Of a DNA stretch of 64,000 bases, positions 23,229 through 64,000 are shown in pieces (position 1 is the first letter of the stretch; every line of letters begins with the position of its first letter). Source of the stretch: Trissonchulus latispiculum (taxonomy: Eukaryota; Nematoda; Enoplea; Enoplida; Ironidae); NCBI GenBank assembly GCA_030248195.1, contig JASAND010016413.1, positions 1-64,000 on the forward strand, read 5' to 3'. The position numbers were made by a program, and so were the translations under genes. A model generated the notes under the pieces. The model saw only the letters and a program-made list of their open reading frames with translations, was not told the DNA's origin and made no database searches.

Positions 23229-23273
23229 AGGTCCATTTAATCTATAATTTATCACCATCATTATCTTTTGATC
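23229..23273 (+). promoter_or_regulatory. Splice-acceptor-like site and short 5' UTR of the Mpv17-family gene
   Basis: A pyrimidine-rich TTTTTCCTACTTATAG ends at 23230, just before a 43-nt leader that reaches the ATG. It could receive an upstream 5'-UTR exon or a spliced leader. The CHK-kinase gene has the same arrangement at 59452. Confidence 0.45.
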
Positions 23274-39394: not shown

Positions 39395-39919
39395 TGTAAT
39401 GAAAATGAATGTTTTGTCGCATGATTTTATTTGATAAAGGAACAGTTTCGACTTAACACGGAATTTTAAATCTTGGATTCTGCTGGAAATTGGGAAGGGA
39501 ATGAAATCTACAATGGAATGAATGTGTCTGATTGCCACCTTAACTGTATTTTTTATGATTGCCATAGTTAAGACATGAATTTCGGGGAAAATTAATTGGA
39601 ATGAAGTTTCAAATTTAAGTTGGGTTGTTTCGAGCTGGCAGTTAACTTTTACTAATTATGCTGTTGCGGGACAGCTAGGTAGAGGCCCGTTGGGTGCCGC
39701 TCCCCAGGCGGATTGGCAGGTGTAGAACGACTGTCAATGATTAGTGCAGAGCACGGTCCACTCATTAATTTAAGTTAATTAAAGGGATTCTGCTATTATG
39801 GCCAAAACAACCCAACATGGTCAGAAAAAAGGCCAGTGTTCGCTCACTGTACGTCGAAATGCAATCAAAGTTTGTTACATCTAAATAGATCAAGACCTGC
39901 TCTTGCGATTTATAAAAGA

Positions 39920-40730
39920 AAAGCAACCTATTCTGTGGTTCGTTCTAATTTTACAAGCCATTTTCAAACTTCATATGGAGATTACAAAGTTACTTTCAGG
40001 TTTTGCCCATATCCGTGGTTTTCGCTTAATTACTCGTTAATTAACATAATTAATTAGTATAATTTTTATATCATTAAAACCAGCAAGCTTTGCTCTTTCA
40101 GAGTATCCAAAAATAGTTACCCTTTCTGTGGTTCGATTTCACTTTACAAGCTGATTTGCAAGCCACCTACTGAAGCTCCAGTTGGCCTCCAGATTTGGTT
40201 TGTCACAGGGTTTCTAATCAAAGTTGCGTGTTAATTAACATCAATAATTAGGTTAAAACTTTTATAAATAAAATCAGCCAGTCTTCCTCTTTAAAACAAG
40301 CACAAAATAATTGGTGCTTCTGTGGTTCGATTTCATTTTACAAGCTGATTTGCAAGCCACCTACTGAAGTTTAGGTTGGCCTCCAGACTTGGATGGTCCT
40401 AGTGCTTCTAATTAAAGTTTCATATTAATTAACATCAATAAGTAGGTTAAAACTTTTATAAATCAAATCAGCAGTCCTTCCTCTTCAAAATAAGTACAAG
40501 ATAATTGGTGCTTCTGTGGTTCGATTTTATTTTACAAGCTGATTTGTAAGCCACATACTGAAGTTCAAGTAGGCCTCCAGACTTGGATGGTCCTAGTGGT
40601 TTTAATTAAAAGTTTCACACTAATTAACATCAATAATGAGGTTAAAACTTTTATGAATGGACTCAGCAGGTCTTCCTCTTTAAAACAAGCACAAAATAAT
40701 TAGTGCTTCTGTGGTTCGATTTTGCGTTAT
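39920..40730. repeat. Tandem repeats of about 180-200 bp inside the LTR
   Basis: The word TTCTGTGGTTCG recurs near 39930, 40118, 40319, 40513 and 40699, each followed by TTTTACAAGC-like sequence and then AATTAACATCAATAA. The same array is present in the 3' LTR (54955-55760). Confidence 0.8.
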
Positions 40731-41036
40731 GCTTGATTTTCTGACCTAACCGGGAGAGCTCGGCTCGTCCCTCAAGTATTGTGATTATTAATAGTTTAAA
40801 CTTCATTTTAAGTTTAATTAAAGTTTATATTTAGTTAAGTTAATCCATATTCTAGCTAATTAATTAATGAAAGTTAAGTTAATTAAGTTTAAAGTTTAAT
40901 TAATTTGGTTTTTATTGGTTTTAAAGCAAAAGGGAAGCTCGGCTTGCCCTTTCACTGAACTTAACTGGTTTTTGCTTAGCTAGTGTGGAATTCTTTTGAA
41001 GTTTTTCTCTTTTGCAAAGTTTTGGTTTTGTAATTT

Positions 41037-42300
41037 AAGGGAAGACTTTTATGTCTTCCCTTATTGCCAATTTGGAGTAACAGATGTGATACTTTTATAA
41101 CTGTACAAACTTTCCGCTCTCTGAGTCCAGCTCGGCTGAGACTCAAAGGCAAAAGAAAAAGAGGAAAACTGATAAAAGTTTGAAGAAAAGTTTTTATTTT
41201 AATTCATGTCTTAGCTCTAGTTGTTTGTATTTTGTATTGTGTATTTGTATTTTGTACAAGGCTCGTACCTACTAACTTTTAATTAATTACCTACCTAATC
41301 AGCAGTCTCTAAGTTTTAATTCAGGGGACCCTCTGGTCCAGGTTTTAAGGTGTTGCGTCTTGTTTTTCTCTTTTAGCGAGAAATTGACGTAGTGTCAATT
41401 TCTCGCCTGAGTGCGTTTGCTTTGATGTTATCTTCTTAATTTTTCTCCCTAATTTTACAATAGGGGAAAGGGATTAGTTTAATTGCCCTTTCCCCTTTAA
41501 CGTAAACACTTGAGAGCCCGCTCAAAGTCACGTTATGATTACAACTAATTTGACCCAATCAGAATCATTTAAGTGCGCGCCTTTTGCGCGGAGGACAATT
41601 TCGGCCAATCAGACGAATGATTGCCGAAATTGTCATGATTGACAGGTAGACTTGTTTTGAACATCAGTCTTACCTCGTCTTCCGAACCGTACGGCCGCTT
41701 TTGGCCTCTCCCTACACTCCCCCCGTTTTCTTTAACATAGGGCGTCACTATGCCCAAATTTTCCCCCCACCCTGGAACGGGGCTAGTGTATTAACACTAG
41801 CCCCTTGTCAATTTTTTCTTGGGGTTTTAGTTTAGGAGGGGGTTTAGGTTTATTTCCCACCTTAGGTCTTCCCCCCTTTCTTTTTCTCTTCCCATTACCT
41901 AGTTTTTTAAAGGCGATTTCCCTCTTTTTCTGGGAATCGCCTCTGAGATTACAGGACCCAGAGGTCCTTTTCAAAAATACCCCTGAGATTGCCCCTTAAA
42001 CTAAACTATTTTATTCTACTGTTATAAATGATTCTGATTTGTAATATCTGTCTAGATATTACCTGGGTCGCGTGGATTTCCGAAAGGAAATCCACTGAGA
42101 AGCTTGGACTTTTGGGAACTCTCCCAAAAGTCCCCAAACTTCACTTTCAATTAAAATTTCTTCAATTTTAACCACAGAACGCACTCTCAAACTTTTACTC
42201 CATTTTACGCACTTTTCAAACTTTCAATCTCAGCTTCTTAGGGATAATTTCCTGGACCCAGGAAATGTCGTGTTAGGATCTTTCTCTGAAAGATCCTAAC
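41037..42300. repeat. Array of ten perfect stem-loops in the 5' LTR
   Basis: Stem-loops with arms of 9-17 bp lie at 41037-41062, 41376-41406, 41463-41495, 41594-41634, 41779-41804, 41911-41942, 42072-42095, 42106-42134, 42246-42265 and 42272-42300. Example arms are GCGAGAAATTGAC (41376) and GTTAGGATCTTTC (42272). The arm sequences are all different. The first five also occur in the 3' LTR (56069-56824); the rest fall in the stretch missing there. Confidence 0.85.
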
Positions 42301-44110
42301 GGTTTTAACCCATTTGATTCAGGTTGAGTCCAAGCCTAGCCCCGCCCTTCCTGGATCACACGCCTGGCCTGCACTGGATCTGCTGCCTTTCGATATTGCC
42401 GGTCCTGCTGCTACCAGTCTGAATTTCCGAGATTTTGGATCCCCGATCCTGCCATTCTTCCGCCGCCGCCTGTGTAAGATTAATCCTGATTCCCCTGGTC
42501 CTGTCTTTTGATCCAGATCTCTCTCTCTCAGTCTCTGGAATTCCCGGAGTCAAAGGTTCTTTGAAGTAGTAACTTTGTTTCTTTCTGAACTGCCTACGGG
42601 ATAAACAGTCTGCCAGGGCAGAGCGGGGTGCACATTCATCAGTTCAACAACAGGGTGATTTATCCGACACCCTTTCATCAGTTCTGTCAGCAAGGGTGAT
42701 TTGTCCGACACCCACGTTCGGTCATCTATTGAATTTGCCGTGCACACCCGTTCCCCCTGGTTGAGGCTTGCTCCCTCGACCTGACGTCTGATCATCAAAG
42801 CTGTCCTTAGCGAACTTCCAGCCGCTTCACGGCTCTGAGGGTCTGTTGCAAGACCGATCAAACTTTCGGTTGTGGGCTGAGTTGGGAAATCCCCAATCAA
42901 GAAGAAAGAAGAATAAGGTTTACTCTTGAACTCTCAAAACAGTTATGCATTCTTTTGTCGTCGCTATTGTTTTCTCTGTTTTCTTGTGTATTTAAATCTT
43001 GTTGAATCTAAATTCTGAACCTTTTGGGGAAATCTAAAAGCCCTTAAACTTATTTCTAAAATTCATGCGAATTATCCGTTGGCCGCTTCCTTAGGCAGGA
43101 AGTAGGATATTAGCGTCTGGCTGTCTGCCGAGTGGGCAGTCAGAACTAATATCTACAGCCCTGGGAAGGGTGGAAACTGTGCAAGGTTAACTGCATCCAT
43201 TAAAATAAAAGCAAATCGGACACCATAAGCAGATAGGTGGACCTACTCGATATCTTAGTATTTGAGATTTAATATAGTGATCATTTATCAGAAACCAGAC
43301 TCGATATTAAAGACTAGTTCATTCTTAAGTTTGTAGGTTTCGAGTTTTAATCTAAGTTCCATTTCTTCCAGGGTTCTTCTGTAAAACTTTCTCTGTAGGG
43401 ACAGTTCGTAGGTCAGACTGCTGGTTAGGTCTGGGTTATCATCCTGGTCTACTTTTAAAGCTTAGGTCTAATAAATTGGTACGAGCCTTAGGAATCAGGT
43501 TTTAGCTGTTTTTGTCTGTGTGCGCTTATTGAAGTTATTGAGCATTCGCTTGCAGCTTTAATATCTTGTGCGCAGTGTATCCTTTCAGAATTCAGTAACT
43601 GTTTGTTGTATTTTGAATCAGTTTAGACAGTTGATGATTCTTGTGCTGTACCTATTATCTACATTACCTACGGTCTGTATCTTATCATTTCTATTTCGTC
43701 TGCCTATAACTCTTGTACATTAAACCCTAAAATTTATAGGTTCTGTGGTTCTTTCTATAGGATCTTAGGGTATAGAGTAGCTTTGATTAGAATCTTAGGC
43801 AGGATTTATCAGTGTGGCATCCAGTCTTGTTTAGTAGTTAAGTTGGTTTTGAAAGTTGAGATAGCGAATTAAAGATTACAAAAGAGTGGGCTTCAGATAA
43901 ACAGTTGTTCACTAGACTTGTATTGAAATTGAACGGAAAACGGAGCTTGGAGGTTCGAACTCACGGTCTAACGCGGACAAATCCCAGATTGGGTAGACCC
44001 AAACCAGGCTACTTGATCTGAAGGATCTAAGAGGTGACCCAGAGTCTCTCGCCTGTTCGCACCGCTGTTAGTGCTCTAAATCCAGTGCAGCTACTTTTGA
44101 GGCCTAAGTC

Positions 44111-44116
44111 AATAAA
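44111..44116 (+). promoter_or_regulatory. AATAAA signal near the LTR end
   Basis: AATAAA 33 nt before the LTR terminus; the same hexamer lies at 58036-58041 in the 3' LTR, where it would define the RNA 3' end. Confidence 0.6.
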
Positions 44117-44159
44117 TTTAGAAGTTTGATTTCACTGTAAGCACTACAGCAACAATTTT

Positions 44160-44485: not shown

Positions 44486-47362
44486 ATGTGGTCCCAAGTA
44501 TTTTGCTTGCTTGCATCTTTCATTTTTCCTGACTTTCCATTAATTAGCTTATATATCGTCCGCTGTTTAAAACGCTGTGCAAAAACCTTTCTTCTCACTG
44601 GTACTGGTGGTGACTGTGTTAGTATAGTGTCGTCTACAAACTCTGAGAATGCCGTGAGCGTTGCAGTTCAGACTGATAGCGATAGTGATAGTGGGTTTGA
44701 TTCAGAGAGCAACGCTTCATTAGACGTGAGCGATATTTTTTATGACGCCCAGGAATCGATTCAGGATATTTGTCCGCAGGACGGGGAATCCACATTTGTT
44801 CCCGTTGAGGCAGAACCCTCATTAGATAGAGGTAATCATAGTCTAAGTCTCGATAGGTTTCCTGAGCCTGTGTTTTCATCTGTGATCCGGACGCCTACAC
44901 CTACTGTGATTGGCGATTTAGGGTGCATGGGAAGTGACTATCCCGACAGTGCGCCCTTTTCCAGTTCTGCCTGCAGTTTTCCAGGGATTAAAGTTGATGA
45001 CGAATTCTTCGCTCAACTTGTATTTCCTTCCGTGCCCAATACACCTACGCCTTCTATCAGCGGAGATATAGGATGTGAAGAAACTGACTTTCCAGGCACT
45101 GTTCCACTTTCCAGGCCTGCCATCTCTTTTACAGAGACTCCTGGTAAACAAAAGTTTAGTGGTGGTGCTTTAGTTTCTGCAGGGCATAATGATAAGAAAA
45201 CAGGGCACACTAGAGTTGCTCTGACTTCTTCTGGACAGCAGGTAGTGGTCACTGAGGAAAAGACGAAGTCTAGGAAGCCCAGGGAATCTAAGACAGAGCA
45301 GCTTCGCAGGGAGCTGGATGCCTTGTTTGATGATTCCGCAGAGCATACCAATGTTAAAGATACCGGGCGCACTAACATTGCTCTCGTTTCTTCTGGGGAC
45401 CAGGTAGAGGTCGCTGAGGAAAAAACAAAGTCTAGGGAGCTCAAAGAATCCAAGACAGACCAACTTCGCAGGGAGCTAGATGCCTTCTTTGATGAAGTGC
45501 GGAGTGGTAATTTTAGAGCAAGCGATGAGCGTATTGATCAGGCAAATCGGATAGATGAAGTTGAAGGCTATCCTAAGGAAGCGAATAGGGAATTGTCTAC
45601 TTGCTCTGATATCACTTCTGGTCTTCAGCCCGCATCACAACCGGTGCCAGAAGAAATGGCTCAAGAGTCCGCGTTTGTGCTAGGACAAGGCGTTGAGGCA
45701 AGGAATAATGAGCAAGGTTTGATCAAGTCTAAGGTTTGTGAGGACGGGCAAAAGGCTTCGGCCAACAGTAAAGCTGTTGCGTCAGCTCAGAGGCAAACGG
45801 TAACACATCCAGTTCAGTCGCAGAAGGTTGTAGGCGGTGTACAAGAACCGGAACCGAAAACTAGTGAGAGATTCCGCACCAAATCGGCCTTGACTAAAAG
45901 GCGTAGAGCAGACACGACCATGACTGAGAGCGAGGCTGCAAACAAAGGGGGTAGAGCTTTTCAGCCAGAACTGACAGAAAGGGATCGTACTAAGTCGATC
46001 GAAACCTCGTTAGTTGAACCAGTAAGCTCCGCTATGGTTGAGAATGTAGCTGCTGCTGTGAGGGCTCATGAAACCATCGGAGAGACGAATTTGCAGCTGC
46101 TTAAGGCACTGGACGTAATGGAAAAAACTTTATCTGAAACTGTGAAGACTCAAGTAGTGACTGCAGCGTTGCAACAATTGAATCAGTTTAGTGATCCTAC
46201 AAAGGAGAACATTTTGGACCATTTGTATCATTTTGAGACTGTTTGCACTGCTCTTCGTTGTACCGAGACGGATAAGATTACTTTGCTGCCGAAGACGTTT
46301 TCTGGCAGAGCAGAGGAAGTTTTTAGGTCACAGGATATTACTGAATGTCACACTTGGCCTGAATTGTCAAAGTTTGTGCAGTCACTTTTCTTGAGTCAGA
46401 AGGATATTATGTCAGCTACTAGACTGTTGAATAGAATTGTGCAGAGTGCCTCCGAATCCGTTCTTGATTACAAACTGAGGTTACTGAGGTATGCGCGTGT
46501 AGCATTTGTGGGACAAGAGGATTCTGATTTTATAGGAAAGCACTTAACTCGACTGTTTATCTTAGGACTTAGACCAGAATTGGCTGCGGCTATTCCAAGT
46601 AGTAATCTTACTTTGGAGGAAGCTTCAAAGTTTGCTAGTGACTTAGAATGTTCGATGAAGTGTAGTGAGGAGACTGCGTCGCGATTTCTTGCAGAGAATC
46701 CACCTCTGGCATTACCTGCAACACCATCGTCCACTTCTCTGAAAATGCCTGTTAGCTCGGAAAAGAGACCGACTCGGGTTCGTTGGTGCCACAACTGTGG
46801 GATTCGAGGACATGTACGGCGTAAGTGCCGCAGGCCCGGAGGTGGAGCCTATAAATGGGTTCAAGCTGGACGTGCAGTGAGACAGGACGGGAGATATGAT
46901 TCGGCTAATGGTAATTACAAAGGGCCGATGCCAACTAAGCAGGGAAATCAAACCACCGAATCCAGACAAAATGATTTGGATTCGGCAGAGCGATCAGTCC
47001 GACACTACACTTCAAACCAGACCACCGACGCGGATGCAGCGGAATCTAGAAAGGGGCAAAAGGACGAGAACGTCATTAACTTAAGACATACCACAGCGGG
47101 CAGGTCGTCAAGGAACTTGTACGGTTCAGATTCTAGACAATGTGAACCTTATTCGACAGAGCAGTCAATTGGACACTACATTCCAAACTGCGTTGACACG
47201 AATGCAGCAGAGTCTAGGAGGTGGAAGGACGACAAGAACGTCATTAACTTAAGACATACCACAGCGGGCAGGTCGTCAAGGAACTTGTACGGTTCAGATT
47301 ATGGTGGGAAATCGGGACCAAGGTATTGTTTTACAGCCGGCGACACTCCCACATATTTTTAA
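44486..47362 (+). CDS. gag: Gag-like polyprotein with CCHC zinc knuckle
   Basis: A 958-residue ORF. Residues about 1-200 are Ser/Asp/Pro-rich after a hydrophobic start. Two tandem copies of a ~54-residue unit (EEKTKSR..ESKT.QLRRELDA) lie at about 240-345. A helical Gag-type region follows at about 555-730, with the typical LDHLYHFE, FSGRAEEVF and LGLRPELAAAI segments. A single CX2CX4HX4C knuckle (C768 onward, CHNCGIRGHVRRKC) comes next. The tail holds another duplication: 65 identical bases, 168 bp apart, at 47068 and 47236. Gag packages element RNA into particles. No protease or RT follows in any frame. The start is the first ATG of the open frame; later ATGs are possible. Length and an intact frame argue for recent or current function. 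Confidence 0.85.
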   Translation: MWSQVFCLLASFIFPDFPLISLYIVRCLKRCAKTFLLTGTGGDCVSIVSSTNSENAVSVAVQTDSDSDSGFDSESNASLDVSDIFYDAQESIQDICPQDGESTFVPVEAEPSLDRGNHSLSLDRFPEPVFSSVIRTPTPTVIGDLGCMGSDYPDSAPFSSSACSFPGIKVDDEFFAQLVFPSVPNTPTPSISGDIGCEETDFPGTVPLSRPAISFTETPGKQKFSGGALVSAGHNDKKTGHTRVALTSSGQQVVVTEEKTKSRKPRESKTEQLRRELDALFDDSAEHTNVKDTGRTNIALVSSGDQVEVAEEKTKSRELKESKTDQLRRELDAFFDEVRSGNFRASDERIDQANRIDEVEGYPKEANRELSTCSDITSGLQPASQPVPEEMAQESAFVLGQGVEARNNEQGLIKSKVCEDGQKASANSKAVASAQRQTVTHPVQSQKVVGGVQEPEPKTSERFRTKSALTKRRRADTTMTESEAANKGGRAFQPELTERDRTKSIETSLVEPVSSAMVENVAAAVRAHETIGETNLQLLKALDVMEKTLSETVKTQVVTAALQQLNQFSDPTKENILDHLYHFETVCTALRCTETDKITLLPKTFSGRAEEVFRSQDITECHTWPELSKFVQSLFLSQKDIMSATRLLNRIVQSASESVLDYKLRLLRYARVAFVGQEDSDFIGKHLTRLFILGLRPELAAAIPSSNLTLEEASKFASDLECSMKCSEETASRFLAENPPLALPATPSSTSLKMPVSSEKRPTRVRWCHNCGIRGHVRRKCRRPGGGAYKWVQAGRAVRQDGRYDSANGNYKGPMPTKQGNQTTESRQNDLDSAERSVRHYTSNQTTDADAAESRKGQKDENVINLRHTTAGRSSRNLYGSDSRQCEPYSTEQSIGHYIPNCVDTNAAESRRWKDDKNVINLRHTTAGRSSRNLYGSDYGGKSGPRYCFTAGDTPTYF

Positions 47363-50300
47363 ATCAAACCTAACTTTGATTGGGAGCTCATGCTCCACGG
47401 GGGCTAATGCCTTCATATGTTATTAGGATAGGTTTGATTTACAATATATTTGGGAGCTCATGTTCCTTTAGATTAACGGAGCTTAATGCGCCAAGGTGAA
47501 ATATATTTGGGAGCTAATGCTCTTTTAAAATTACTGGTAGCTTAAGGCACCAATGTAAACATTAGCTAGGGTTTACACAATTCGTCTTTTTGCTTTAGCT
47601 GTTTAGGATTAATATTCACTACAAAATTCAATTAGTGTATCTAAATGTTAATGTGTTAGGTCTTATGCCATGTATTGCGCTTCTGCCAGCTCTGTTGTGT
47701 GTCTTAGTGAATGTATGTCAGCTTAGCGTTAAGATTTGAACCAGACATTTGGCATCTGCTTGCTTTGCAGCGTACCTTTTATATCGAATGGATGTCGGGG
47801 TAGTGTGGGATGCGAATCAACCATGCAGTCTGCGAGCGTAAAAAGTTGCAGTATCTAACTTGACCTAAACTATTTCACTGTAGTAGATTGTAGATTTGTA
47901 ATAGTTGTGGACCTGTGGGGGAACGACATTGCGACCTTGAAACATTTAGGTTTTACTTGTAGCTTTCATTAGTTTCCTATTTTACTAACTGTAATGAACG
48001 GAATTCATCAGCCTAGTAGGATCAGTGTTGCTTTCTTGGAGCATCAAGTGACAGCTCAACGAATTATTTGTCTAAACTTGAGTGTTTTAAGATAAAATTA
48101 AATCGTGGCGCAGCAATCAAACTTTAACTTCACAAATAGTCCCTAATTGATAAGCAGAACCTAAATGTGTAAATTACAAATTTTCTCATTCTCTAATCAT
48201 GGCAGCACAGTCTCTGTCGGTAGTAATTATTCATTCAGACTAGGTTAAGTATCCTCAAATCTTGATGCAGGTTAAATGTGAAGAGCTATTTCATGATTCA
48301 GAATCAAGGAAAGCTTTTGTTAAGTTTATGAGTAACTGACGTCTCCAACTTTTGTCGAAATTTGCTTTTAAATTCTACAAAATGTTCTTTCGAATCTTGT
48401 AGCTGAAAGTAACTAAATGCATTCTTGTCGGTTTTTGCACATATCCTAGTGTCTGGAGATTTAGGCAACTTTGAAATTGAATCTCGTTTGTAGATTTAAA
48501 AATAATAATAACTGTATGTGAAAAGTTTCTTCATCCGCATAAGCTGAGATACTGTTAAGCCTTAGTGCCCTACGTAACAGAAGTTGCTTTTGCCGGTGTA
48601 TCTTTTAGTTTTAAAGTTCAACTGAAACCATCAGTCGTCGGTTTTCTACAAACCACAGTAGCTTGCCTTTTTGTGGGACGTCATTTAGCTGAAATGAGCG
48701 GAAAATTTCAAAGTTTATTTATCAGTTAGACAGTCTTTTGCTTAGAGTTATAATATTAAATTTCCATCTTGAAATGAACTTTACCATCCAAATGAAATTT
48801 TACCTTTGATCTTGTTATTAATTTTGCTTCCCAATTTGTTTGGTTATTTATTTTATCAAGGGCTGCATTTAGTGATTGCTGGCAGCAAAAGCAGTACTAA
48901 ATGTCAACAAACAGAATGGCAATTGATGATTTTTTCCTAAATATTAGGAAAAGTGAAACCCAAAACAATATAGCTTCTATGCTATGATTTTCAATTTTCT
49001 AATCTTATTGAAACACCATCAAAAAGCTTTGCTTGAGCTAGTTTGATTTTACTTCTGAAATTATCAGTTTTGCTCTGTTATTTATTTCGAAATATTTCAG
49101 TTTCCCTGCTCATTGGCGAAAAATTTTACGATTCTGATTAATCAATTTTGAAACTTGTCTCAAACAGGAACACTATCATTTTCTAACGTTGCCTGTATTG
49201 CTTCTCTCGTTTGACGGAATTAACCTATAACCATTCACGAACCAAAATGCAATCGGGTTTTAGTCTCTAGAATTCGGGTTATGCACTGTAAATCAGTCTG
49301 TGTGCATTAAACGTAATTTAGTTTGAAGCTCAAAAATTCGTATCGATCATTATGTATCCCTTTTGACGATGTGATGTGGGCGTTATTAATTAATGGTCGA
49401 ATTGAGAAGCAGCCACTATTTACTTTTGCAACTTTTCTGATAATTTAGGTGGTAAAAAGCAAATCATTCTATGCAAGAAACGGGTTGATTACTTCGGTTG
49501 CGAATATCAGCTTTTGCATAAAGCATGTATTCTTAGCTTGACTTTTCTAGTAGCTTGTACCTTCAGCTTCAGTTCTTCGCTTTAGCTGCTGTCTGTTTCT
49601 TCAGAACCGCACATTTTAAAACCAGCTTAGTTGAAAATCGGCTATAATTTTTAATTTCTTAAGTTTTTGTTTTAAAAGATTCTTTTCCAATCTTTAAAGT
49701 AGAAATGAAACTTTATTTCTGAATTGATCAGGTCTACTACATGCTTACACTACAATTTTTACGGATTGGCTTGTTAGCGGTTACAATTGAACTTACATTA
49801 GTCAATTCGACTTTTAATTAGTATTAGCTAATTACACTTATTCCGAAATTATATGAATTTAGTTTCGGCCCCTATGTTTGGCATGAGCTTGACTGCACCA
49901 TTGTGTTTTTCCATCTCTGGCGAGGTTTACAATACGAAAGCATTTTTTGAAAATTTTTACGGATTACGCTTTAACAAGTTTTAATCGTATTCAGTATGAC
50001 CTGGGTGTACACACTGTTTGCGCAATTAAATTGCTGTCTAAGCTTTGTCGTTCACACTCAAAGTTTAGTTTTCCATCTCAGAAATGACTTTAACTGAAAT
50101 AACCGATTTGTTGCAAATCGGTTATAATCAAATAATTCAAATTAGGTAGTGCTTACATACCTTTTTCCTAAAAGTAAGCTCCGCTTATGTTGGTTCTTTA
50201 AATGAAAGTTGCTGTTTCCGCCATCGTCTAGTAGTGAATTGGATTTAACGTTTGCAGCTAAACTTGGAATTGCAAGTAATTCTTATTAACAGCCCCTAAC

Positions 50301-51463
50301 AGTTTACAATTCTAATTGTTGCGGTTGCTGGCTGGTGCTGGTGGAACCTAAGCGTTAATCGGAGGCATGCACCGGTTAACGTTGGGTAGCGCTATGCCGG
50401 TGGCTGCAACAAGGAAGAATTTGTCGCCCTGCAGATGGCACTGTGGGTCTACTAATTTGTAGCGTGTCTCTCTGCAGACCCATAAAACAAAGCAATTCCA
50501 AGTTAAGCTGTGTTTTATAAAATTTTACTTATTTAGCCACTGAATATGCTTGTGCACTTAAGGCAAGTTACTTTTTATCAATTTGCTTCTCTTAATATTG
50601 AAGTTATACTTCCCATTTACAAACACTGTCGTTCCCCCAGGCAGTCCCACGTAGGGAAAGGGTCGTTGCCGGATATGAACTTACAATGCAAAATTTTAGT
50701 AAGCTTAGGAAATTCGGATCTGCACGTCAACAATCTCACTGTTTCTGTTGCGAATCAGCATTTGGCCTAACTCTAGAAGGCTACTATTAAGCTACTTCCA
50801 ACTTTTGCGTAAAAGTATTTCAATAAATTATCCTGTTACCTAAGTGATATTTGTCTGAGATTTTAGAGTAGTTAGTTTAAAATTTTGCTATTTCTAAGTA
50901 CGGTCCACAGTTTGCGATCCACCATGAGTTTTGGTGTGTTAAGTACTCTACTAAGACGGCTGACTGCAGCAGCCTAGTCTCTGCTAGCTAGATTACTTCA
51001 CATGCGAAGATATAAATTAAAGAACAAATTGGGAACTGTAATATGCTAGAATGAACGAAATACAATGAAGCTAGATCACTCACTAAATATTAGTAACTTA
51101 GATCCTTATACGGTTTAAGAAATGTGTTTCTCCTTCGAAATACATTTGGTTTAGGTCATATAAATCTAGGTTACAGGCTTTAACTAATAATATTATGACC
51201 CGGCCAAAGGTTAAGTTGCCGTAACTTTGTAGTCGTTTTAATTAGTAGTTTTAATTTTAATATGTTTATGGCTTGAAGCGTTAAACTTGCAGCACTGCTG
51301 ATCAGCTTGCACCTAACTTGTTAGTCTCATTCTGCCGGATATGCGAATGACAAATGAACAATTTCGCAATTGGTTTCTATACCTTTCGGGATTGGTTAAA
51401 AGGAAACAGGCAAAAATTAGTTGTCAATGGCCTTCTGGTGACTTGATGCTAGCATGTCTAAGG
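47363..51463. other. 4.1 kb internal region without a long ORF
   Basis: Where a pol gene would be expected, no frame above about 75 codons exists on either strand. The first 200 bp hold three copies of a GGGAGCTCATGCTC-like word (47379, 47451, 47508), able to form GGAG/CTCC hairpins, each followed by an AGCTTAATGC-like word. The rest is uniform AT-rich sequence with no domain remnants that I recognise, so it may be structural RNA, spacer or heavily decayed sequence. Confidence 0.6.
47379..47545 (+). repeat. Triplicated GGGAGCTCATGCTC motif after gag
   Basis: Three imperfect repeats about 60-70 bp apart pair a GGGAGCT(C/A)ATG(C/T)TC word with an (A/G)GCTTAA(T/G)GC-like word. They lie directly after the gag stop codon. 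Confidence 0.65.
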
Positions 51464-51473
51464 CAGAGGCACC

Positions 51474-51509
51474 ATGGTCTCAGCAGCCTCTAGTTCATGC
51501 CTTGTCTGA
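51474..51509 (+). CDS. Small upstream ORF starting in the GAGGCACCATGGTCTCA motif
   Basis: A 12-codon frame (MVSAASSSCLV and a stop) begins at the ATG of the first motif copy, 15 nt before the NADAR ORF's ATG. It could lower translation of the ORF, but it may be only a consequence of the repeated motif. Confidence 0.3.
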   Translation: MVSAASSSCLV

Positions 51510-51524
51510 CTTTGTAGAGGCACA

Positions 51525-52661
51525 ATGGTCTCATTTCAAAGCAGTCATTTTATTTTAGGCATCTGGATTGCCATGGCATCGATTGTTCCTTTCCAAGGTC
51601 AAAAGGATTTCCTTTCCAATATGTTTCCATGCAAGATTGATAAAGCTGGAAGTTGTTTCTCTTCATGCGAAGCAATATATCAATCTTCGAAAGCATGGAT
51701 CTCGGAGAACGATGAAACTGCACAGGACATTTGTCATTCGCAATCCGGTTTTGAGGCTAAAAGGCTGTCAAAGAATGTGCAAGTTGATCATCGATTGTGG
51801 GAACAGTGCAAGTTAGCCGTCCTAGAAGGTGCTGTTTACTCAAAGTTCTGGCAGAATCCAGATTTGTTGCAATCGCTGCTTGAAACGGGCAACTCAGTCT
51901 TAGTTGAAGCGAGTCCAGATCATATCCCCCATTGTCGCCGGGACTTATTTTATGGGTCTGGTTTATCTAAGAGGGAATTGCAACGAACAGACGTTTATAA
52001 TTGGCCAGGGTTGAATACTATGGGTAAACTACTTATGGACATTAGAAGTAGTTTCGGGGAAAAGGATTTCCCAAAACTGTTGGTTATTACAGACTCGCAG
52101 GGTTGTCGCATACCGACCCACAGTAGTAAGGCAATTAAAATTATTTCGATTCGCGGTGGGAGAATCCAAGATTTGATTAAGATAGCTTGTGTTTCTGCTC
52201 ATAAGGGATATCAGGGATGCGTAATTTTTGGCGGAACCAATAATCTTGCCTTGGACCACCGGAAGCCAGCGATCGCTCGAGATGGTGCACTGCAGCCCCG
52301 ACTTCCGAAATCGATTCTTAGGCAGTATCGTGGATTAAAACATTTCTGTAACCAGTTTCCAATGATTAAGCTGTGGATTAGTGAGATTCCTCCTCGGTTT
52401 GATCAGCCTCACGATCGTCCAGGACAGCAAAGTAGTTTCCAGCTCACTGTTGGGAGAGTAAATAAGCAACTGAACCTTGTAGTTTCTTCGTTTCGTGAAT
52501 TCGGATTGAACGTGAATATTCTTCCAGTGTATAAAGACTTCAATGATCCAAAATATTTTGCTAACTGTCAGTCTGGTCGTAGTTCAGTAGATTTGCACTT
52601 TAATGCTGTGGGTGGAAAGATTCTCTTGGATAAACTAGAGTCTATAGCTTCGGAGTTGTAA
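51525..52661 (+). CDS. NADAR domain - SGNH hydrolase fusion protein
   Basis: A 378-residue ORF. Residues ~20-175 match NADAR (YbiA/DUF1768): a DFLSNMFPCKI segment (like FSNFYP), then CEAIYQSSKA with the conserved Glu (E49), KFWQNPDLLQSLLETGNSVLVEAS, and the closing GLNTMGKLLMDIR. NADAR enzymes are N-glycosidases acting on ADP-ribose-linked or riboflavin-precursor substrates. Residues ~183-378 look like an SGNH/GDSL hydrolase: ITDSQ with S191 as likely nucleophile, a glycine pair at 211-212, GGTNN at 236-240, and VDLHFN with D356 and H358. The spacing D-X-H instead of D-X-X-H is unusual. The first ATG lies in a repeated motif; M17 (51573) is an alternative start that removes a short hydrophobic leader. 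The frame is intact inside a retroelement without pol. Role unknown; ADP-ribose-based defence evasion or RNA-end processing are guesses. Confidence 0.85.
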   Translation: MVSFQSSHFILGIWIAMASIVPFQGQKDFLSNMFPCKIDKAGSCFSSCEAIYQSSKAWISENDETAQDICHSQSGFEAKRLSKNVQVDHRLWEQCKLAVLEGAVYSKFWQNPDLLQSLLETGNSVLVEASPDHIPHCRRDLFYGSGLSKRELQRTDVYNWPGLNTMGKLLMDIRSSFGEKDFPKLLVITDSQGCRIPTHSSKAIKIISIRGGRIQDLIKIACVSAHKGYQGCVIFGGTNNLALDHRKPAIARDGALQPRLPKSILRQYRGLKHFCNQFPMIKLWISEIPPRFDQPHDRPGQQSSFQLTVGRVNKQLNLVVSSFREFGLNVNILPVYKDFNDPKYFANCQSGRSSVDLHFNAVGGKILLDKLESIASEL

Positions 52662-54427
52662 ATTCGTCTACTGAGGCACCATGGTCTCAAACGGTAGACA
52701 CTTTACGACTGATCTTTTCTATCCATCATTGTATCTGTCTATCCCTAGTATAATCTTCGGTAGGTCATTAGCTTTTTCTTTTAAGCTGTAGTGTAGTTTT
52801 ATGTACGGACCATAGTTGATAGACAATCTGAATAGTTCTTTCTCATTCGAATGTACAATCTATATTTCTTTGTAACATAGCTCTTAGTCGTGTATAGTAT
52901 ATCTTGTTTTTACCTTACTTCTGACATTTACTCTTGTATTAGAGGCTGACATATACTGGCAATCCAACAGTTTGGCGTCTGTTGAGGCACCATGGTCTCA
53001 CATAACAGGCATCAATCAGTTGGCTTTTGCCATAATCTTAACTATTGTGCAGTCATTTTTTATCTATGTTTTCATTCAGTTTTCGTTCACTTTAGTTAAT
53101 CAGCTGTTAAAAGGAGGGCTGAAAATTTTTATCCTTTGAATTTTTAAATTTTGTTTTAGTAGTGTAGTCTTCTTTGGTAGTTTATGCTGTATCATCAAGT
53201 TGTCTACTCATGCGCTTTCTTACATTTTACTTTGGCGTCTCTAATCAAAGTACCAACAAATATAAGCTCTTGGTTATAGTTTTTACAGCGAATATAAGTT
53301 TTAGGTCTAAATAATCATGTAATCATAGATAGCACGATTCGCTATAGGTATGGCTGTTTTTCCTTCTCACTAGTGTTTTTAGTTATTATGATTCCTATTC
53401 AGATTTTAATCATTCAGTTCTTCCTGAAGTTGGACTAAGTCTACCCTAGTAAGCTTCTCAACCTAGTTTCAAAATAACAAGGGCAAGGCAGCATAGTAGC
53501 CCCCGCAATATCAAATTCTAAGCCATGATTGGGAAAAGTCTATTATGCAGTTTTTTAAATTCAAAGTGACCGATGAACTTAGTTCAATACATCTTTGTTC
53601 GCGTCTCGTAAAGCATCGTATGCGTTAAAGCATCTTACCTTTCATTTCTTTTAGTGCCAGTCAGAGCTAGAAGCGGGTCGCAAAATGTGACCCGCGATTA
53701 GCCGCTTCAAGCTTCGATCCCAACCGTCCGGCCATCGATACTTATGTAGTACTTAAAATTTAACGAACATATCTTTACACTTTTTCGCAGAAGAACTAAG
53801 TCTTGTTTACAAATTTACAACAAAATGTTCATTTTACAGTTTCCCCCTTAGCAGTCAACCTAGCCATTTTTAGCGGGTGAGGATCCTAGAGGTTGACGAA
53901 TTTGAGACAGCTTGCTATAGAAGGATTATTTTACAGCTTGCTATAGAAGGATTATTTTGAGACAGCTTAGAAACAGTTACAGAATAAGATTATGTACTGC
54001 TCCTACTTAAGTACACGCATGACGCACGCCAAATTTTGGAAATGGATGCAGTTGCCATCGTACAGTTTTCACTACATTCGCATTTTGCTTGTTTAACTTC
54101 GTATTCGCATTTTGCTTGTTTAACTTCGTATTCGCATTTTGCTTGTTTAACTTCGTAGATTTCCCTGAAGATGTATTTGAACTGTCTTTGTCTTTATTGG
54201 TCTTGTATTGTATAGAATTTTGCATGGTATAAAATTTTGTTTGTGTGTACAGAATAATTCCAGTACGTTGTATAGAATGAATGTTTGAAAGACTGGCAGT
54301 AAGTCTGTAATATGTCGTTAGTAATATGTCATTTTCAAAATTTCAAGTTTTATGCAGTTTTAAGTTTTTTGGGGTTATGCATTCCATCCTCCAAGTAGAA
54401 AACCAACCGCTTTAATCTCGGGTAGGC
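52662..54427. other. 3' internal non-coding region of the retroelement
   Basis: No long ORF. Contains a GCGGGTCGCAAAATGTGACCCGC hairpin near 53672 (arms GCGGGTC/GACCCGC), a short duplication near 53930-53960, and three tandem 27-bp units with TTCGCATTTTGCTTG at 54077-54157. No convincing polypurine tract was found before the 3' LTR. Confidence 0.55.
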
Positions 54428-57400
54428 TGTAATGAAAATGAATGTTTTGTCGCATGATTTTATTTGATAAAGGAACAGTTTCGATTTAACACGGAATTTT
54501 ACATCTTGGATTCTGCTGGAAATTGGGAAGGGAATGAAATCTACAATGGAATGAATGTGTCTGATTGCCACCTTAACTGTATTTTTTATGATTGCCATAG
54601 TTAAGACATGAATTTCGGGGAAAATTAATTGGAATGAAGTTTCAAATTTAAGTTGGGTTGTTTCGAGCTGGCAGTTAACTTTTACTAATTATGCTGTTGC
54701 GGGACAGCTAGGTAGAGGCCCGTTGGGTGCCGCTCCCCAGGCGGATTGGCAGGTGTAGAACGACTGTCAATGATTAGTGCAGAGCACGGTCCACTCATTA
54801 ATTTAAGTTAATTAAAGGGATTCTGCTATTACGGCCAAAACAACCCAACATGGTCAGGAAAAAAGGCCAGTGTTCGCTCACTGTACGTCGAAATGCAATC
54901 AAAGTTTGTTACATCTAAATAGATCAAGACCTGCTCTTGCGATTTATAAAAGAAAAACAACCTATTCTGTGGTTCGTTCTAATTTTACAAGCCATTTTCA
55001 AACTTCATATGGAGATTACAAAGTTACTTTCAGGTTTTGCCCATATCCGTGGTTTTCGCTTAATTACTCGTTAATTAACATAATTAATTAGTATAATTTT
55101 TATATCATTAAAACCAGCAAGCTTTGCTCTTTCAGAGTATCCAAAAATAGTTACCCTTTCTGTGGTTCGATTTCACTTTACAAGCTGACTTGCGAGCCAC
55201 ATACTGAAGCTCCAGTTGGCTTCCAGATTTGGTTTGTCACAGGGTTTCTAATCAAAGTTGCGTGTTAATTAACATCAATAATTAGGTTAAAACTTTTATA
55301 AATAAAATCAGCCGGTCTTCCTCTTTAAAACAAGCACAAAATAATTGGTGCTTCTGTGGTTCGATTTCATTTTACAAGCTGATTTGCAAGCCACCTACTG
55401 AAGTTTAAGTTGGCCTCCAGACTTGGATGGTCCTAGTGTTTCTAATTAAAGTTTCATATTAATTAACATCAATAAGTAGGTTAAAACTTTTATGAACAAA
55501 CTCAGCAGGTCTTCCTCTTCAAAACAAGCACAAAATAATTGGTGCTTTTGTGGTTTGATTTTATTTTACAAGCTGATTTGTAAGCCACATACTGAAGTTC
55601 AAGTGGGCCTCCAGACTTGGGTGGTCATAGTGTTTTTAATTGAAAGTTTCACACTAATTAACATCAATAATCAGGTTAAAACTTTTATAAATAAACTCAG
55701 CAGGTCTTCTTCCTTAAAATAGGCACAAAATAATTGGTGCTTCTGTGGTTCGATTTTGCGTTATGCTTGCTTTTCTGACCTAACCGGGAGAGCTCGGCTC
55801 GTCCCTCAAGTATTGCGATCATAAATAGTTTAAACTTGATTTCAAGCCTAATTAAAGTTTATGATTATTAAGTAATCCATATTCTAGCTAATTAATTAAT
55901 GAAAGTTAAATTAATTAAGTTTAAAGTTTAATTAATTTGGTTTTTAATGGTTTTAAAGCAAAAGGGAAGCTCGGCTTGCCCTTTCACTGAACTTAACTAG
56001 TTTTTGCTTAGCTAGTGTGGAATTCTTTTTAAAGTTCTTTTCTTTTGTAAATTTTGGTTTTGTAATTTGAGGGAAGACTTTCATGTCTTCCCTTATTGCC
56101 AATTTTGAGTAACAGATGCGATACTTTTGTAACTGTACAAATTCTCCGCTCTTTGAGTCCAGCTCGGCTGAGACTCAAAGGCAAAAGAAAAGAGGGGAAT
56201 TGATAAAAGTTTGAAGAAAAGTTTTATTTTTTAATTCATGTCTTAGCTACTTAATTGTTGTGTTTTGTATTGTGTATTTTGTATTCTGTGAAAGGCTCGT
56301 ACCTACTAATAATTGGTTAATTTTACCTACCTAATCGGCAGTCTAATAGGTCTTAATTACGGGGACCCTCTGGTCCAGGTTTTAGTGGTGTAATTTCTTG
56401 TTTTTCTCTTTAAGCGAGAAATTGACGTAGTGTCAATTTCTCGCCTGAGTGCGTTTGTGTTAATCTTTTCCATTAGTCTTACAATAGGGGAAAGGGATTA
56501 GTTTAATTGCCCTTTCCCCTCTAATGTAAACACTTGAGAACCCGCCTAAAGTTATTTGATGATTGCAACAACATTGACCCAATCAGAATCATTTAAGGGC
56601 GCGCCTTTTGCGCGGAGGACAATTTCGGCCAATCAGATGAATGATTGCCGAAATTGTCGTGATTGACAGGTAGACTTGTTTTGAACATCAGTCTTACCTC
56701 GTCTTCCGAACCGTACGGCCGCTTTTTGGCCTCTCCCTTCACTCCCCCCTGTTTTCTTTATATTAGGGCGTTACTATGCCCAAATTTTTCCCCCTCTCCG
56801 GAACGGGGCTAGTGTATTAACACTAGCCCCTTGTCAATTATTGGGGTTTTTATTTAAGGGGGGATTAGGTCTACGTCCCACCTTAGGTCTTCCCCCTTTT
56901 TTTTTGAAGGGGGCTTTGGGGGGGGGGGGTTTTGGGGGTTTGTCTCGTTGTTTAAAACTTGTAACACTCTAATCCTTTGGGGAAATCTAAAAGCCTCAAA
57001 CTGCTTTCTAAAAATTCGTGCGAATTATCCGTTGGCCGCTTCCTTAGGCAGGAAGTAGGGTATTAGCGTCTGGCTGTCTGCCGAGTGGGCAATCAGAACT
57101 AATATCTAGAGCCCTGGGAAGGGTGGAAACTGTGCAAACTTGACTGCATCCATTAAAATAAAAGCATATCGGACACAATAAGCATATAGGCGGACCCACT
57201 CGACATTTTAGTAGTTAGACCAGACTCACTATACATGACTAGTTCATACTTAACTTTGTTGGTTTCAGGTTTTAGTTAAAGTTCAAATTCTTGCAGGATT
57301 CACTCTTAAGTTTTTTAGAGGCAGTTCGTATGTCAGACTGCTGGTTAGGTCTAGGTTACCATTCTGGTCTACTTTTAAAGCTTAGGTTTAATAAATAGGT

Positions 57401-58072
57401 ACGAGCCTTAGGATTCAGTAATTGGCTGTTTTTGTTTGTGTGAGTTGCTAATGTCATTGAGTGTTCGCTTGCAGCTTAATAATATTTTGTGCTCTGCTTA
57501 GCATTCCAGTAATCAGTAATTGTTTGTTGTTGTATACGGTATCATTTTGGACAGTTGTTTATATTTGTGCTGTACCTACTTATCTGCGTTATCTAAGGTC
57601 TGTAACTTATCATTTCCTTCTCGTCTGCCTATAGCTCTTGTACATTAAATTCTAAAATTTATAGGTTCAGTGGTTCTTTCTGATAGGATCTTAGGGTTTA
57701 GATTAGCTTTGACTAGAATTCTAGGCAGGATTTATCAGTGTGGCATCCAGTCTTGCTTAGCAGTTAAGTTGGTTTTGAAAGTTGTGATAGCGAATTAAAG
57801 GTTCCAGAAGGTGGGCTTGTGCTGAACAGGTGTTCACGATACTTGCATTGACCTTGAACGTAAAACGGAGCTTGGAGGTTCGAACTCACGGTCTAACGCG
57901 GACAAATCCCAGATTGGGTAGACCAAAACCAGGCTACTTGATCTGAAGGATCTAAGAGGTGACCCAGAGTCTCTCGCCTGTTCGCACCGCTGTTAGTGCT
58001 CTAAATCCAGTGCAGCTACTTTTGAGGCCTAAGTCAATAAATTTAGAAGTTTGATTTCACTGTAGCACTACA
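54428..58072 (+). repeat. 3' LTR, about 3.65 kb, with an internal deletion
   Basis: Matches the 5' LTR from its TGTAATG start to its CACTACA end with scattered differences. The segment equivalent to 41820-42985 is missing and replaced at 56880-56960 by a short stretch with a 9-T run and a run of about 12 G. AATAAA at 58036-58041 would serve polyadenylation. Confidence 0.85.
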
Positions 58073-62400: not shown

Positions 62401-64000
62401 TTGGTAACGAATTCGCCTCGCTTGGAACCGTCGATACAATTCAGAAGGTAATCAGTCTATGCCTGCTTTATGGACCCTTTGAGAGGGAATGGGGGTTTCG
62501 AGTTTATGTCATGGACAGAAATAACGCCTACATTAATTAGGTAATTGATAGAATAATAAAATTGAATGGCATAAATAAAGGATTAATGAATTAAATTATT
62601 TAGTGCTGACGTAATGTTAACCTGTTCGCTTGAGATTCTTGAGCAGTCGACTGTAAAATAACAGTGAACCAACTTGCCGCCAAATTTGGTTGGAACTTAT
62701 TTATGATTGAATCATGTCGAATAGCTGTATCCTAGGCGACCAAGCAATTAATTTTTTAAACGTACGTAGTGTGTTTTATGGCCTCTAGAAAAGCAAAGTT
62801 TGTGATATTTCAGTTTCACAATGGCGAAGTAGAAATCTACCGTTTGCTGTCGCAAAATTCACTTCTGAAAATTCCTCGGTGCTATTATCTCGAAGAGATG
62901 ACTGAAAACTCGAACGGACTCATAATTATGGAAGATTTATCCGACGTTGCTTGCTCCACAAACTTAATGGAATATCTGCCGTTGCGAAAAATTGAAGTCT
63001 TGCTAGATTCGATTGCTTCTCTGCAAGCATTCAGCATAAGAAATGACCGCTGGAAGCAATGCGCTGGTAACGTTTTTGATTTATACCCTAGGTAGCTTCG
63101 TTTGGGTACTTATGAGAAATTGAGAGCACATCAGAGCAATGGGGAAGGGGTGGCCGCTACCGTTGTAGCGTATGTGCTCCGAATTTTAGCCTTAAGTTAT
63201 TGTAAAAATGACAAATTATCCACCAGATTCAACTGTTAATTCAGTTTCTGTAATGGGTACTGCGCCCTGCTTTCAATTTCTACTGGATATTTGTGGACAG
63301 ACCACCAGAATCCAATACGCTTGTCACACTCTTAGTTATTATGTACTCTTGGTCACACCAAATGCGCCAGCGGAGTCACTTGCTGAAGAAACCTCCTTGT
63401 AACGGATCTTAGCGCGGGCTGACCTGTAAATTAATTGTCGCCATCCCTTCAATCTCCATTTCCCCCCAAATTAAGACTAATGCTGGATTAGGGCTTGCAA
63501 CCATGTTCGGAAACGTTTCCAAGAATCCAGACACCAGGCCGAAGAGCACTAATCCACCAACTTTTTCCATGAACCTAGACTTATTTTCTATTTTTAGGAA
63601 ATGTGCACGTAATACATTAAATCAGCAAATGACTGAAATTTACCCAGAGTCGGCGACTTATACCATGACAAAATTTGGAGATAGGGTTCACCTTAATCGA
63701 GAGAAGTCAGATGTAATCCTTCAACGATTTAAGGTAAAATGGTTTCCTCTTCATAAATTTGTAACTATTCTAAAGGCACCTGATTTAAATTTTTAATTAA
63801 CATTTTTGAGGAAACAATTTTTGCACGTTACAGCCGCAAAACTGACTCGTTAATTACGTCACGGTTTATGATGGCTTCAGTTTGAGACCGCTGAATAATA
63901 GAAGAATTGAATTGTAGAATTCGGTTTTTAGAAATTATCCGAAGAAATGGCCGACCCAGAAAAATTTGGGCATGTTCCAGTCTTAAGCCACGGGGATTTC
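59490..64000 (+). CDS. CHK-kinase-like (ecdysteroid-kinase-like) protein, five 5' exons, runs off the window
   Basis: Exons: 59490-59703, 62338-62447, 62814-63091, 63598-63733 and 63932-64000 (continuing). All borders are GT-AG and the phases agree (1, 0, 2, 0). Exon 1 carries the GKGFMSVVSRVKLEW glycine-rich segment, exon 2 the IIKRP lysine strand (ATP binding), and exon 3 FHNGEVEIYR and a hinge-like LIIMEDL. Exon 5 begins the catalytic loop with VLSHGDF, the HGD of CHK kinases. These features place it with CHK/DUF1679-type kinases of the choline/ethanolamine- and ecdysteroid-kinase superfamily, numerous in nematodes and insects; the substrate is unknown. The C-terminal part, including the Mg-binding loop, lies beyond the window. 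Intron 1 (2.6 kb) contains two nested transposons. Confidence 0.85.
59924..60908. mobile_element. TTAA-flanked element with GGTGGTGATTCC ends
   Basis: The inverted ends GGTGGTGATTCC and GGAATCACCACC are each bordered by TTAA (59920-59923 and 60909-60912), consistent with a TTAA-targeting superfamily such as piggyBac or Kolobok. It is 985 bp and non-coding. Diverged partial copies lie at about 10290-10720 and 28628-28690. Confidence 0.75.
61049..61530. repeat. Harbinger-like block with GGATTAAAATTAATCC palindromes
   Basis: Starts GGCCCTATTTCTTTAATG and is packed with GGATTAAA/TTTAATCC palindromes and repeated TTTCTTTAATG/CATTAAAGAAA words up to CGTTAAAGAAACAGC near 61530. The plan copies that of 32073-33948 (GGGCCTTTTCGCGAATG start, GAGTTAAA palindromes) with different words. 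The right terminus is uncertain. Confidence 0.6.

What the first reader, a model, noticed from the sequence alone, without database searches (positions are those of the whole stretch)
51525..52661. NADAR-SGNH fusion enzyme carried by a retroelement that lacks pol
Seen: one intact 378-codon frame with a NADAR-like half (conserved Glu in CEAIYQ, SVLVEAS, GLNTMGKLLMDIR) and an SGNH-like half (ITDSQ, GGTNN, VDLHFN), lying between the LTRs of an element with Gag but no replication enzymes. Known: NADAR (YbiA/DUF1768) proteins are N-glycosidases for ADP-ribose-linked or riboflavin-intermediate substrates, and SGNH hydrolases cleave esters. Inference: a mobile element may be using nucleotide or ADP-ribosylation chemistry for its own spread or against host control. 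I do not know this fusion from a named element family.
Basis: partly seen in the sequence, partly recalled or inferred. Interest (0 to 1): 0.88.

Follow-up and report, generated by a model that had tools for sequence, protein, structure and literature searches.

The report
Two-enzyme gene in pol-less retroelements
A mobile element without copying enzymes of its own carries a gene that joins two enzyme domains, and natural selection has kept both active sites intact in many related copies, which suggests the gene does a real job for the element.

Summary
Window 51525-52661 is an intact 378-codon frame between long terminal repeats (39395-44148, 54428-58072) of a Gag-bearing element with no detectable pol. 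Its first half is a NADAR domain (Pfam E=2.7e-25). Its second half is SGNH-like: weak alone, convincing across relatives (13 of 23 match the GDSL profile, best 4.8e-7). The assembly holds at least 109 matches; 66 of the 82 spanning 340 residues or more have no stop.

New here: the gene behaves as an accessory ORF3. Pol lies upstream in 15 of 16 distant copies (34-40% identity) and in 0 of 36 near copies (53-100%), most of which were read for only 1.1-2 kb. One branch (100/100) separates the two sets. A splice-acceptor-like site precedes the coding part in 45 of 48 copies. Within the pol-less set a covarying RNA hairpin flanks the gene in 29 of the 30 nearest copies.

NADAR in Gypsy elements, SGNH ORF3s and pol-less families under selection are each in print. 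I found neither the fusion nor the hairpins in my searches. The substrate is inference.

The parts
39395..44148 (+). 5' LTR, 4754 bases
   Evidence: Matches 54428-58072; TG...CA ends; its end recurs in the genome
44160..44177 (+). possible primer-binding site (begins TGG)
   Evidence: Read from the sequence 11 bases after the LTR; no matching tRNA was tested; inference
44486..47362 (+). gag, 958 aa, CCHC knuckle
   Evidence: PF03732 E=0.0053, weak zf-CCHC; relatives L031, L033 above the PF03732 cut-off
47363..51456 (+). spacer without detectable pol
   Evidence: Frames; tblastn of two pols, best E=1.2 over the internal region
51457..51491 (+). hairpin 1
   Evidence: Covariance model R1, E=6e-7; part of the model's training set
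51508..51542 (+). hairpin 2, overlaps the first ATG
   Evidence: R1, E=3.2e-7; part of the training set
51544..51558 (+). splice-acceptor-like site (T-rich tract ending in AG)
   Evidence: TT[TC]AG at this place in 45 of 48 copies against 17% of control windows
51525..52661 (+). ORF3, NADAR-SGNH fusion, 378 codons; likely start at 51573
51603..52052 (+). NADAR domain (residues 27-176)
   Evidence: PF08719; E49, K56, E128
52074..52640 (+). SGNH-like domain (about residues 184-372)
52664..52698 (+). hairpin 3
   Evidence: R1, E=4.6e-9; part of the training set
52975..53009 (+). hairpin 4
   Evidence: R1, E=1.9e-10; part of the training set
54428..58072 (+). 3' LTR, 3645 bases

Best explanation
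This is the accessory third gene (ORF3) of an LTR retroelement lineage that keeps gag and ORF3 but no pol. Shown: a fused NADAR and SGNH-like protein, in many copies, under purifying selection, with both sets of catalytic residues kept; it lies downstream of pol in distant relatives and without pol in one other lineage. Inferred: ORF3 is made from a spliced mRNA; reverse transcriptase and integrase come in trans from other elements; the NADAR half removes ADP-ribose, most likely from guanosines, on element RNA or cDNA; the SGNH half brings the protein or particle to membranes, or cleaves an ester there, as proposed for other retroelement esterases.
For: NADAR 23 of 23 and PF13472 13 of 23 members. 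E49 48/48, position 56 K 42 and R 6, E128 47/48, S191, G237, N240, D356 48/48, H358 47/48. dN/dS mostly 0.1-0.2; 210 amino-acid changes against 403 expected in 13 pairs. ORF3 just downstream of pol in L034 and L035 and pol upstream in 15 of 16 distant copies. Gag upstream on the same strand in 15 contigs. One branch separates pol-less and pol-linked rows. Splice-acceptor-like site in 45 of 48. From print (passages): NADARs reverse guanosine ADP-ribosylation of DNA and RNA (PMC11543638, PMC11125620, PMC11833690); a retroelement esterase hydrolyses esters and binds acidic lipids (PMC3905857); pol-less Athila families with gag and env under purifying selection (PMC2410132).
Against: No activity, transcript or structure was obtained; the single-sequence model is useless (pLDDT 33.8). 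SGNH matches of the window protein alone lie below the curated cut-off, and the block V acid sits at D-x-H, not the usual D-x-x-H (recalled). The best curated name for the NADAR half is a riboflavin-intermediate glycosidase. No pol donor with the same LTRs was found (6 of 9 LTR-to-inside junctions lead to this gag, 3 could not be read). L032 shows neither gag nor pol in 8 kb upstream.
Confidence: 0.6

Rival explanations
1. A host gene, captured or hit by LTR elements; its conservation reflects use by the host.
For: NADAR proteins occur in many animals in print (PMC11125620 passages); selection alone does not say who benefits.
Against: At least 109 matches with element-like copy number; LTR start 1.65-1.75 kb after the frame in the four nearest other copies, as in the window; gag or pol upstream in many.
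Confidence: 0.06
2. The NADAR half acts as its best-named curated relatives do, on riboflavin-pathway intermediates or another damaged metabolite; the link to ADP-ribosylated nucleic acids is wrong.
For: TIGR02464 (riboflavin biosynthesis intermediates N-glycosidase) passes its cut-off, 78 against 73.7 bits.
Against: No evident use for a retroelement (inference). In print E. coli YbiA also hydrolyses guanosine-linked ADP-ribose (PMC11125620 passages).
Confidence: 0.15
3. The fused protein is a binding or scaffold protein (for RNA, ADP-ribose or lipids); catalysis no longer matters.
For: The published ZfL2-1 esterase has low turnover and its active-site mutants still bind liposomes (PMC3905857 passages).
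Against: Catalytic residues are nearly invariant in 48 copies down to about 26% pairwise identity.
Confidence: 0.15
4. The pol-less copies are recent dead derivatives of pol-bearing elements; ORF3 conservation is inherited from them.
For: dN/dS between copies can carry the mark of past selection (point made in PMC2410132, passages). Broken copies exist (16 of 82 long matches have stops).
Against: The 33 pol-less rows form one side of a 100/100 branch and differ from each other by up to 50% with low dN/dS in six groups of them, so selection went on within the pol-less set, unless many independent pol losses occurred there.
Confidence: 0.1

Closest known systems
Ectocarpus Gypsy families with a YbiA-type NADAR domain (e.g. 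Gypsy-12_Ec32) and Crassostrea gigas Tx1 LINE ORF1 NADARs (PMC12477816, passages)
   Same: A NADAR domain carried by retroelements, with a suggested role in processing element RNA
   Different: There at the N-terminus of Pol or in a LINE ORF1; no SGNH domain is named in that text (term counted 0); here a separate frame with SGNH, downstream of pol or without pol
GDSL/SGNH esterase ORF3 of bdelloid rotifer LTR elements (Vesta) (PMC5408684, passages)
   Same: SGNH enzyme encoded in the ORF3 place of LTR elements, shared between unlike retroelements
   Different: No NADAR in that text (term counted 0); some fuse a DEDDy exonuclease instead
ZfL2-1 / CR1 LINE ORF1 esterase (PMC3905857, passages)
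   Same: SGNH esterase in a retroelement protein; hydrolysis and lipid binding shown there
   Different: LINE, coiled coil, no NADAR
Pol-less Athila families of Arabidopsis (PMC2410132, passages); TR-GAG elements (PMC8704663, passages)
   Same: LTR elements that lack pol but keep other frames; in Athila these are under purifying selection and are thought to be mobilised in trans
   Different: Plants; the extra gene is env-like (Athila) or absent (TR-GAG)
NADAR antitoxins of DarT1 and YarT systems (PMC11543638, PMC11125620, passages)
   Same: Conserved catalytic Glu and Lys; the reaction proposed here
   Different: Bacterial, with a partner transferase; no partner was sought here

Membership tests
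NADAR superfamily, YbiA type | Profile match above the curated cut-off | tested here: met
   PF08719 89.9 bits against 35.1; 23 of 23 members match at E<=0.01
NADAR superfamily, YbiA type | Catalytic Glu and Lys, and the YbiA-type Glu in the last strand | tested here: met
   E49 48/48; position 56 K 42, R 6; E128 47/48; matched to 8bau by alignment, assuming the chain index runs two ahead of the paper's numbering
NADAR superfamily, YbiA type | N-glycosidase activity | not testable with these tools
   Needs expressed protein
SGNH hydrolase | Profile match | tested here: inconclusive
   Window protein below the cut-off (E=0.24/0.05); 13 of 23 members E<=0.01, best 4.8e-7; PDB profile top three SGNH, E 0.010-0.014, six non-SGNH chains below them
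SGNH hydrolase | Ser, Gly, Asn, His of blocks I, II, III, V in order | tested here: met
   S191 48/48, G211 48/48, G237 and N240 48/48, H358 47/48
SGNH hydrolase | Block V acid as D-x-x-H (recalled) | tested here: not met
   D356-x-H358, one residue closer, 48 of 48 have the Asp
SGNH hydrolase | Fold | tested here: inconclusive
   Single-sequence prediction pLDDT 33.8
Ty3/Gypsy-type LTR retroelement | Paired LTRs and Gag with CCHC | tested here: met
Ty3/Gypsy-type LTR retroelement | pol with RT, RNase H, integrase | tested here: not met
   None in the window element; present beside ORF3 in distant relatives L034, L035
Ty3/Gypsy-type LTR retroelement | Target-site duplication | tested here: not met
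   Flanks atttg and tatac differ
Ectocarpus-type NADAR Gypsy | NADAR at the N-terminus of Pol | tested here: not met
   Separate frame downstream of pol in L034, L035, no pol in the window
Pol-less, trans-mobilised family (Athila-like) | No pol, other frames under purifying selection | tested here: met
   selection on gag was not measured
Pol-less, trans-mobilised family (Athila-like) | Mobilised by another family's pol | tested here: inconclusive
   No donor with the same LTR found among 9 junctions, 3 of them unreadable or unread

The most novel reading that the evidence does not exclude
A two-part retroelement community: pol-bearing elements supply the copying enzymes, while an old and diverse pol-less lineage supplies Gag and an anti-defence enzyme that strips host-placed ADP-ribose from element RNA or cDNA at membranes; the conserved hairpins around the gene mark a processed ORF3 RNA or recruit the shared machinery.
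Probability: 0.15. Interest if true: 0.88.

Novelty: new variant of a known kind. Interest (0 to 1): 0.62.

Why it matters
In the papers seen, NADARs of eukaryotes and of retroelements have no settled role. A fused, selected, many-copy version inside mobile elements gives a direct way to ask whether ADP-ribosylation of RNA or DNA is part of the conflict between hosts and retroelements. The pol-less set also looks like a retroelement lineage outside plants that has kept protein genes through much divergence without a polymerase of its own, and it carries a covarying RNA hairpin of unknown use that can be tested.

Tried and rejected
Relatives elsewhere: the protein database gave one weak partial relative for the whole protein (P0002) and none for each half. 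Viral contigs: none with P0001; 79 pattern stretches with A2, none confirmed. Prokaryote genomes: 11 stretches, none confirmed. Phage records: 696 with a match, none covering 80% of the query; the 20 rows shown cover 42-58%, mainly the NADAR half. These collections are poor in eukaryotes, so this does not show that the fusion is confined to this genome. Rfam at E<=1 over 38000-60000 gave two matches, both below gathering and away from the hairpins.

Rejected: that the repeated 17-mer is the translation start; it holds the first ATG in the window, but in the 64% group that copy has no ATG and the protein starts downstream. Rejected: that spacers are swapped exactly at the motif; local alignment runs through it, so the high upstream differences are partly alignment artefacts. 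LTR divergence was not used as a clock, because the LTRs are mosaic. Single-sequence structure prediction was not used. The match starts do not test the LTR's left edge, because the query begins there.

Not settled: pol loss or ORF3 capture; the pol donor. Of 9 junctions, the window, C12193, C888, C14828, C6802 and C7647 lead into this gag by coordinates; C3519 (L063, 420 bases) and C3193 end at once; C3502 was not read.

Full report
THE GENE. Its first half is a NADAR domain (PF08719 E=2.7e-25; TIGR02464 above cut-off; PDB 8bau E=1.6e-8 and YbiA 2b3w E=0.011 for that half alone). The SGNH half is weak alone (PF13472 E=0.05; its four PDB matches are ribosomal S12 chains) but becomes clear with relatives: 13 of 23 non-redundant members match PF13472 at E<=0.01, best 4.8e-7. 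The profile of 23 C-terminal halves (A1) has 10 PDB matches at E<=1: the top three (lysophospholipase L1, sialate O-acetylesterase, a PAF-like protein; E 0.010-0.014) and the last (PAF-acetylhydrolase, 0.9) are SGNH proteins, six between them are not.

THE ELEMENT. LTRs lie at 39395-44148 and 54428-58072. Both copies begin to match at 39395/54428, and in L036, a copy 98% alike in ORF3, the match to the 5' LTR also begins at 39395. Across the LTR end, 30 of 40 scored matches (304 candidates) stop at the last LTR base, 1 ten bases before, 9 run on. In the four nearest other copies (C2425, C12136, C11410, C4833) the LTR begins 1.65-1.75 kb after ORF3, as in the window (1.77 kb). The LTR pair is mosaic: the first 750 columns are 99% identical, the middle 82-98% with patches that do not align, a 139-base stretch near the end 100%, and the 5' LTR is 1.1 kb longer. 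No 5-bp duplication flanks this copy. It may be a recombinant, so I did not date it. Pol is not detectable inside (best E=1.2); pol-like matches elsewhere in the window at E<=1e-4 lie only at 34 kb.

COPIES. The window's assembly (734 Mb, 21,732 contigs, organism not named) has 109 scored matches of 1313 candidates, all below E=1e-37; 82 span at least 340 residues and 66 of these show no stop. I aligned 48 intact copies; L004, L005, L011 and L056 (frames under 340 codons) and four loci that repeat copies (L031, L032, L033, L036) were left out. E49 48/48; position 56 K 42, R 6; E128 47/48 (L020 has D); D190, S191, G211, G237-N240, D356 48/48; H358 47/48 (L029 has R). In print the first two NADAR positions are needed for activity and Lys to Arg keeps activity in vitro (PMC11543638, passages); the third fits the YbiA-type glutamate (PMC11125620, passages). 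The residue matching is mine.

SELECTION. dN/dS (Nei-Gojobori) within groups: window group 0.20-0.35 (3 pairs), 64% group 0.14-0.21 (10), 55% groups 0.13-0.24 (3) and 0.10-0.44 with median 0.15 (78), 58% group 0.16-0.35 (3), 53-54% group 0.08-0.20 (10 usable of 15), a pol-linked group 0.09-0.13 (6); in a last group 1 of 15 pairs was usable, with 4 differences and ratio 0.92. In 13 chosen pairs, 579 differences gave 210 amino-acid changes against 403 expected without selection. No stop was seen where 20.6 were expected, but copies had been chosen for intact frames, so that figure is biased. In 8 of 9 pairs the frame has no gap while each flank has 3-30; the ninth has 3 gap runs.

POL-LINKED AND POL-LESS COPIES. 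In 16 copies at 34-40% identity (L034, L035, L043-L056) the pol of L034 or L035 is found upstream in 15; L051 has none, but its frame groups with pol-linked L047. L034 has one 1647-aa frame with protease-like, RT, RNase H and integrase matches that ends 536 bases before ORF3; L035 has a 974-aa pol frame that ends 368 bases before it. In 36 copies at 53-100% identity (L001-L030, L037-L042) no pol is found upstream. For most, only 1.1-2 kb was read, and L040 has 38 bases, so it says nothing. Seven have longer contexts: the window; L031, L032, L033 (7-8 kb); L036 (4 kb); and the spacers L061, L062 (7-7.6 kb) of the contigs of L025 and L012. L031 and L033 show gag, then 4.7 and 5.9 kb without pol, then ORF3; L032 shows neither gag nor pol in 8 kb. 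By coordinates, gag precedes ORF3 on the same strand in 15 contigs, that of L033 included, at 1.4-10.8 kb; in one (C8626) the strands differ. Four gag loci without a listed ORF3 (L057-L060) show no pol in 2.0-6.9 kb downstream. The ORF3 tree of 48 rows puts 33 pol-less and 15 pol-linked rows on two sides of one branch, 100/100; its root is unknown and some branches are long. A profile of seven pol-less Gags finds nothing at E<1 in frames of L034, L035, L053, L056, but the gag of L035 and L053 may lie outside what was read. Pol loss and ORF3 capture both remain open.

EXPRESSION SIGNALS. TT[TC]AG ends 21-32 bases before the codon of F23 in 45 of 48 copies, against 270 of 1606 control windows (17%); L041 and L049 have near variants, L053 none. 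A stricter pyrimidine count passed in only 25 of 48, against 142 of 952 controls. In 8 of 15 pol-linked copies (L035, L046-L051, L054) the open frame has no ATG before F23, which suggests in-frame splicing to an upstream start (inference).

HAIRPINS. GAGGCACCATGGTCTCA, or one mismatch from it, occurs four times in the window, at 51466, 51517, 52673 and 52984; 0.05 expected. Related copies (up to 2 mismatches to a degenerate pattern) lie on both sides of the frame in 29 of the 30 loci L001-L030 (L011, a broken copy, upstream only) and in none of L037-L042. In most intact copies the downstream one starts 24 bases after the last sense codon. Most fold as a 5-bp stem with a 6-base loop and an outer stem. 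The outer stem changes in sequence but tends to stay paired: 50 of 50 distinct copies have a run of at least 4 pairs, against a mean of 37 and a maximum of 44 in 1000 shuffles of flanks. In one fixed register the inner helix pairs in 99% of cells and the outer in 63%; the whole beats its slid versions (81% against at most 59%) and all 500 shuffles on cells paired and covariation score, but 42 of 500 shuffles reach its number of doubly changed pairs and 498 of 500 its number of pair types. Relatedness inflates such tests. A covariance model (R1) finds only the four sites in the window, and weaker ones on both sides of ORF3 in L037 (E 0.004, 0.007), which was not in its training set; none in L038, L039, L041, L042, nor in the ten pol-linked loci given (L034, L035, L043, L046-L049, L052-L054). 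The looser pattern hits 5 of 16 pol-linked loci once.

MECHANISM. Shown: presence, copy number, context, conservation, selection. From print (passages): NADARs remove ADP-ribose from guanosine in DNA and RNA; a retroelement SGNH esterase hydrolyses esters and binds acidic lipids; pol-less families can persist under selection. Inferred: trans supply of pol, spliced ORF3, removal of ADP-ribose from element nucleic acids, the membrane role, and any use of the hairpins.

NOVELTY. Listings of searches for NADAR with retrotransposon, transposable element, LTR, SGNH, GDSL, DUF1768 or YbiA (at most 20 rows seen of each) gave one paper on NADAR in retroelements, PMC12477816 (passages only), and none with the fusion among the rows shown; one search gave the SGNH precedents. 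The library lacks most subscription papers, and Repbase was not searched. Each ingredient is known; the fusion as an ORF3 in pol-bearing and pol-less lineages, and the hairpins, look new.

Noticed in passing
51457-51491, 51508-51542, 52664-52698, 52975-53009: A covarying hairpin with a near-constant loop (mostly ACCATG) on both sides of ORF3 in the nearest pol-less copies; use unknown.
   Followed up: partly
39395-44148 and 54428-58072: Very long, unequal, mosaic LTRs: near-identical outer ends, diverged middle, 1.1 kb extra in the 5' LTR, and an array of about four 194-base tandem units in each.
   Followed up: partly
L057:3531-3565: A strong hairpin match (E=1.6e-6) downstream of a gag in a stretch where no ORF3 was found.
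   Followed up: no
34038-35533 (-): Fragment of another Gypsy-like element with protease- and RT-like pieces.
   Followed up: no
62760-63092 (+) and 23241-23789 (+): Pieces of likely host genes: DUF1679/kinase-like (E=3.1e-9) and Mpv17/PMP22 (E=6.9e-23).
   Followed up: no
1-959: Tandem array with about 150-base units.
   Followed up: no
L022 and L026 (contig C17714): Two nearly identical ORF3 copies 2.2 kb apart, same orientation.
   Followed up: no
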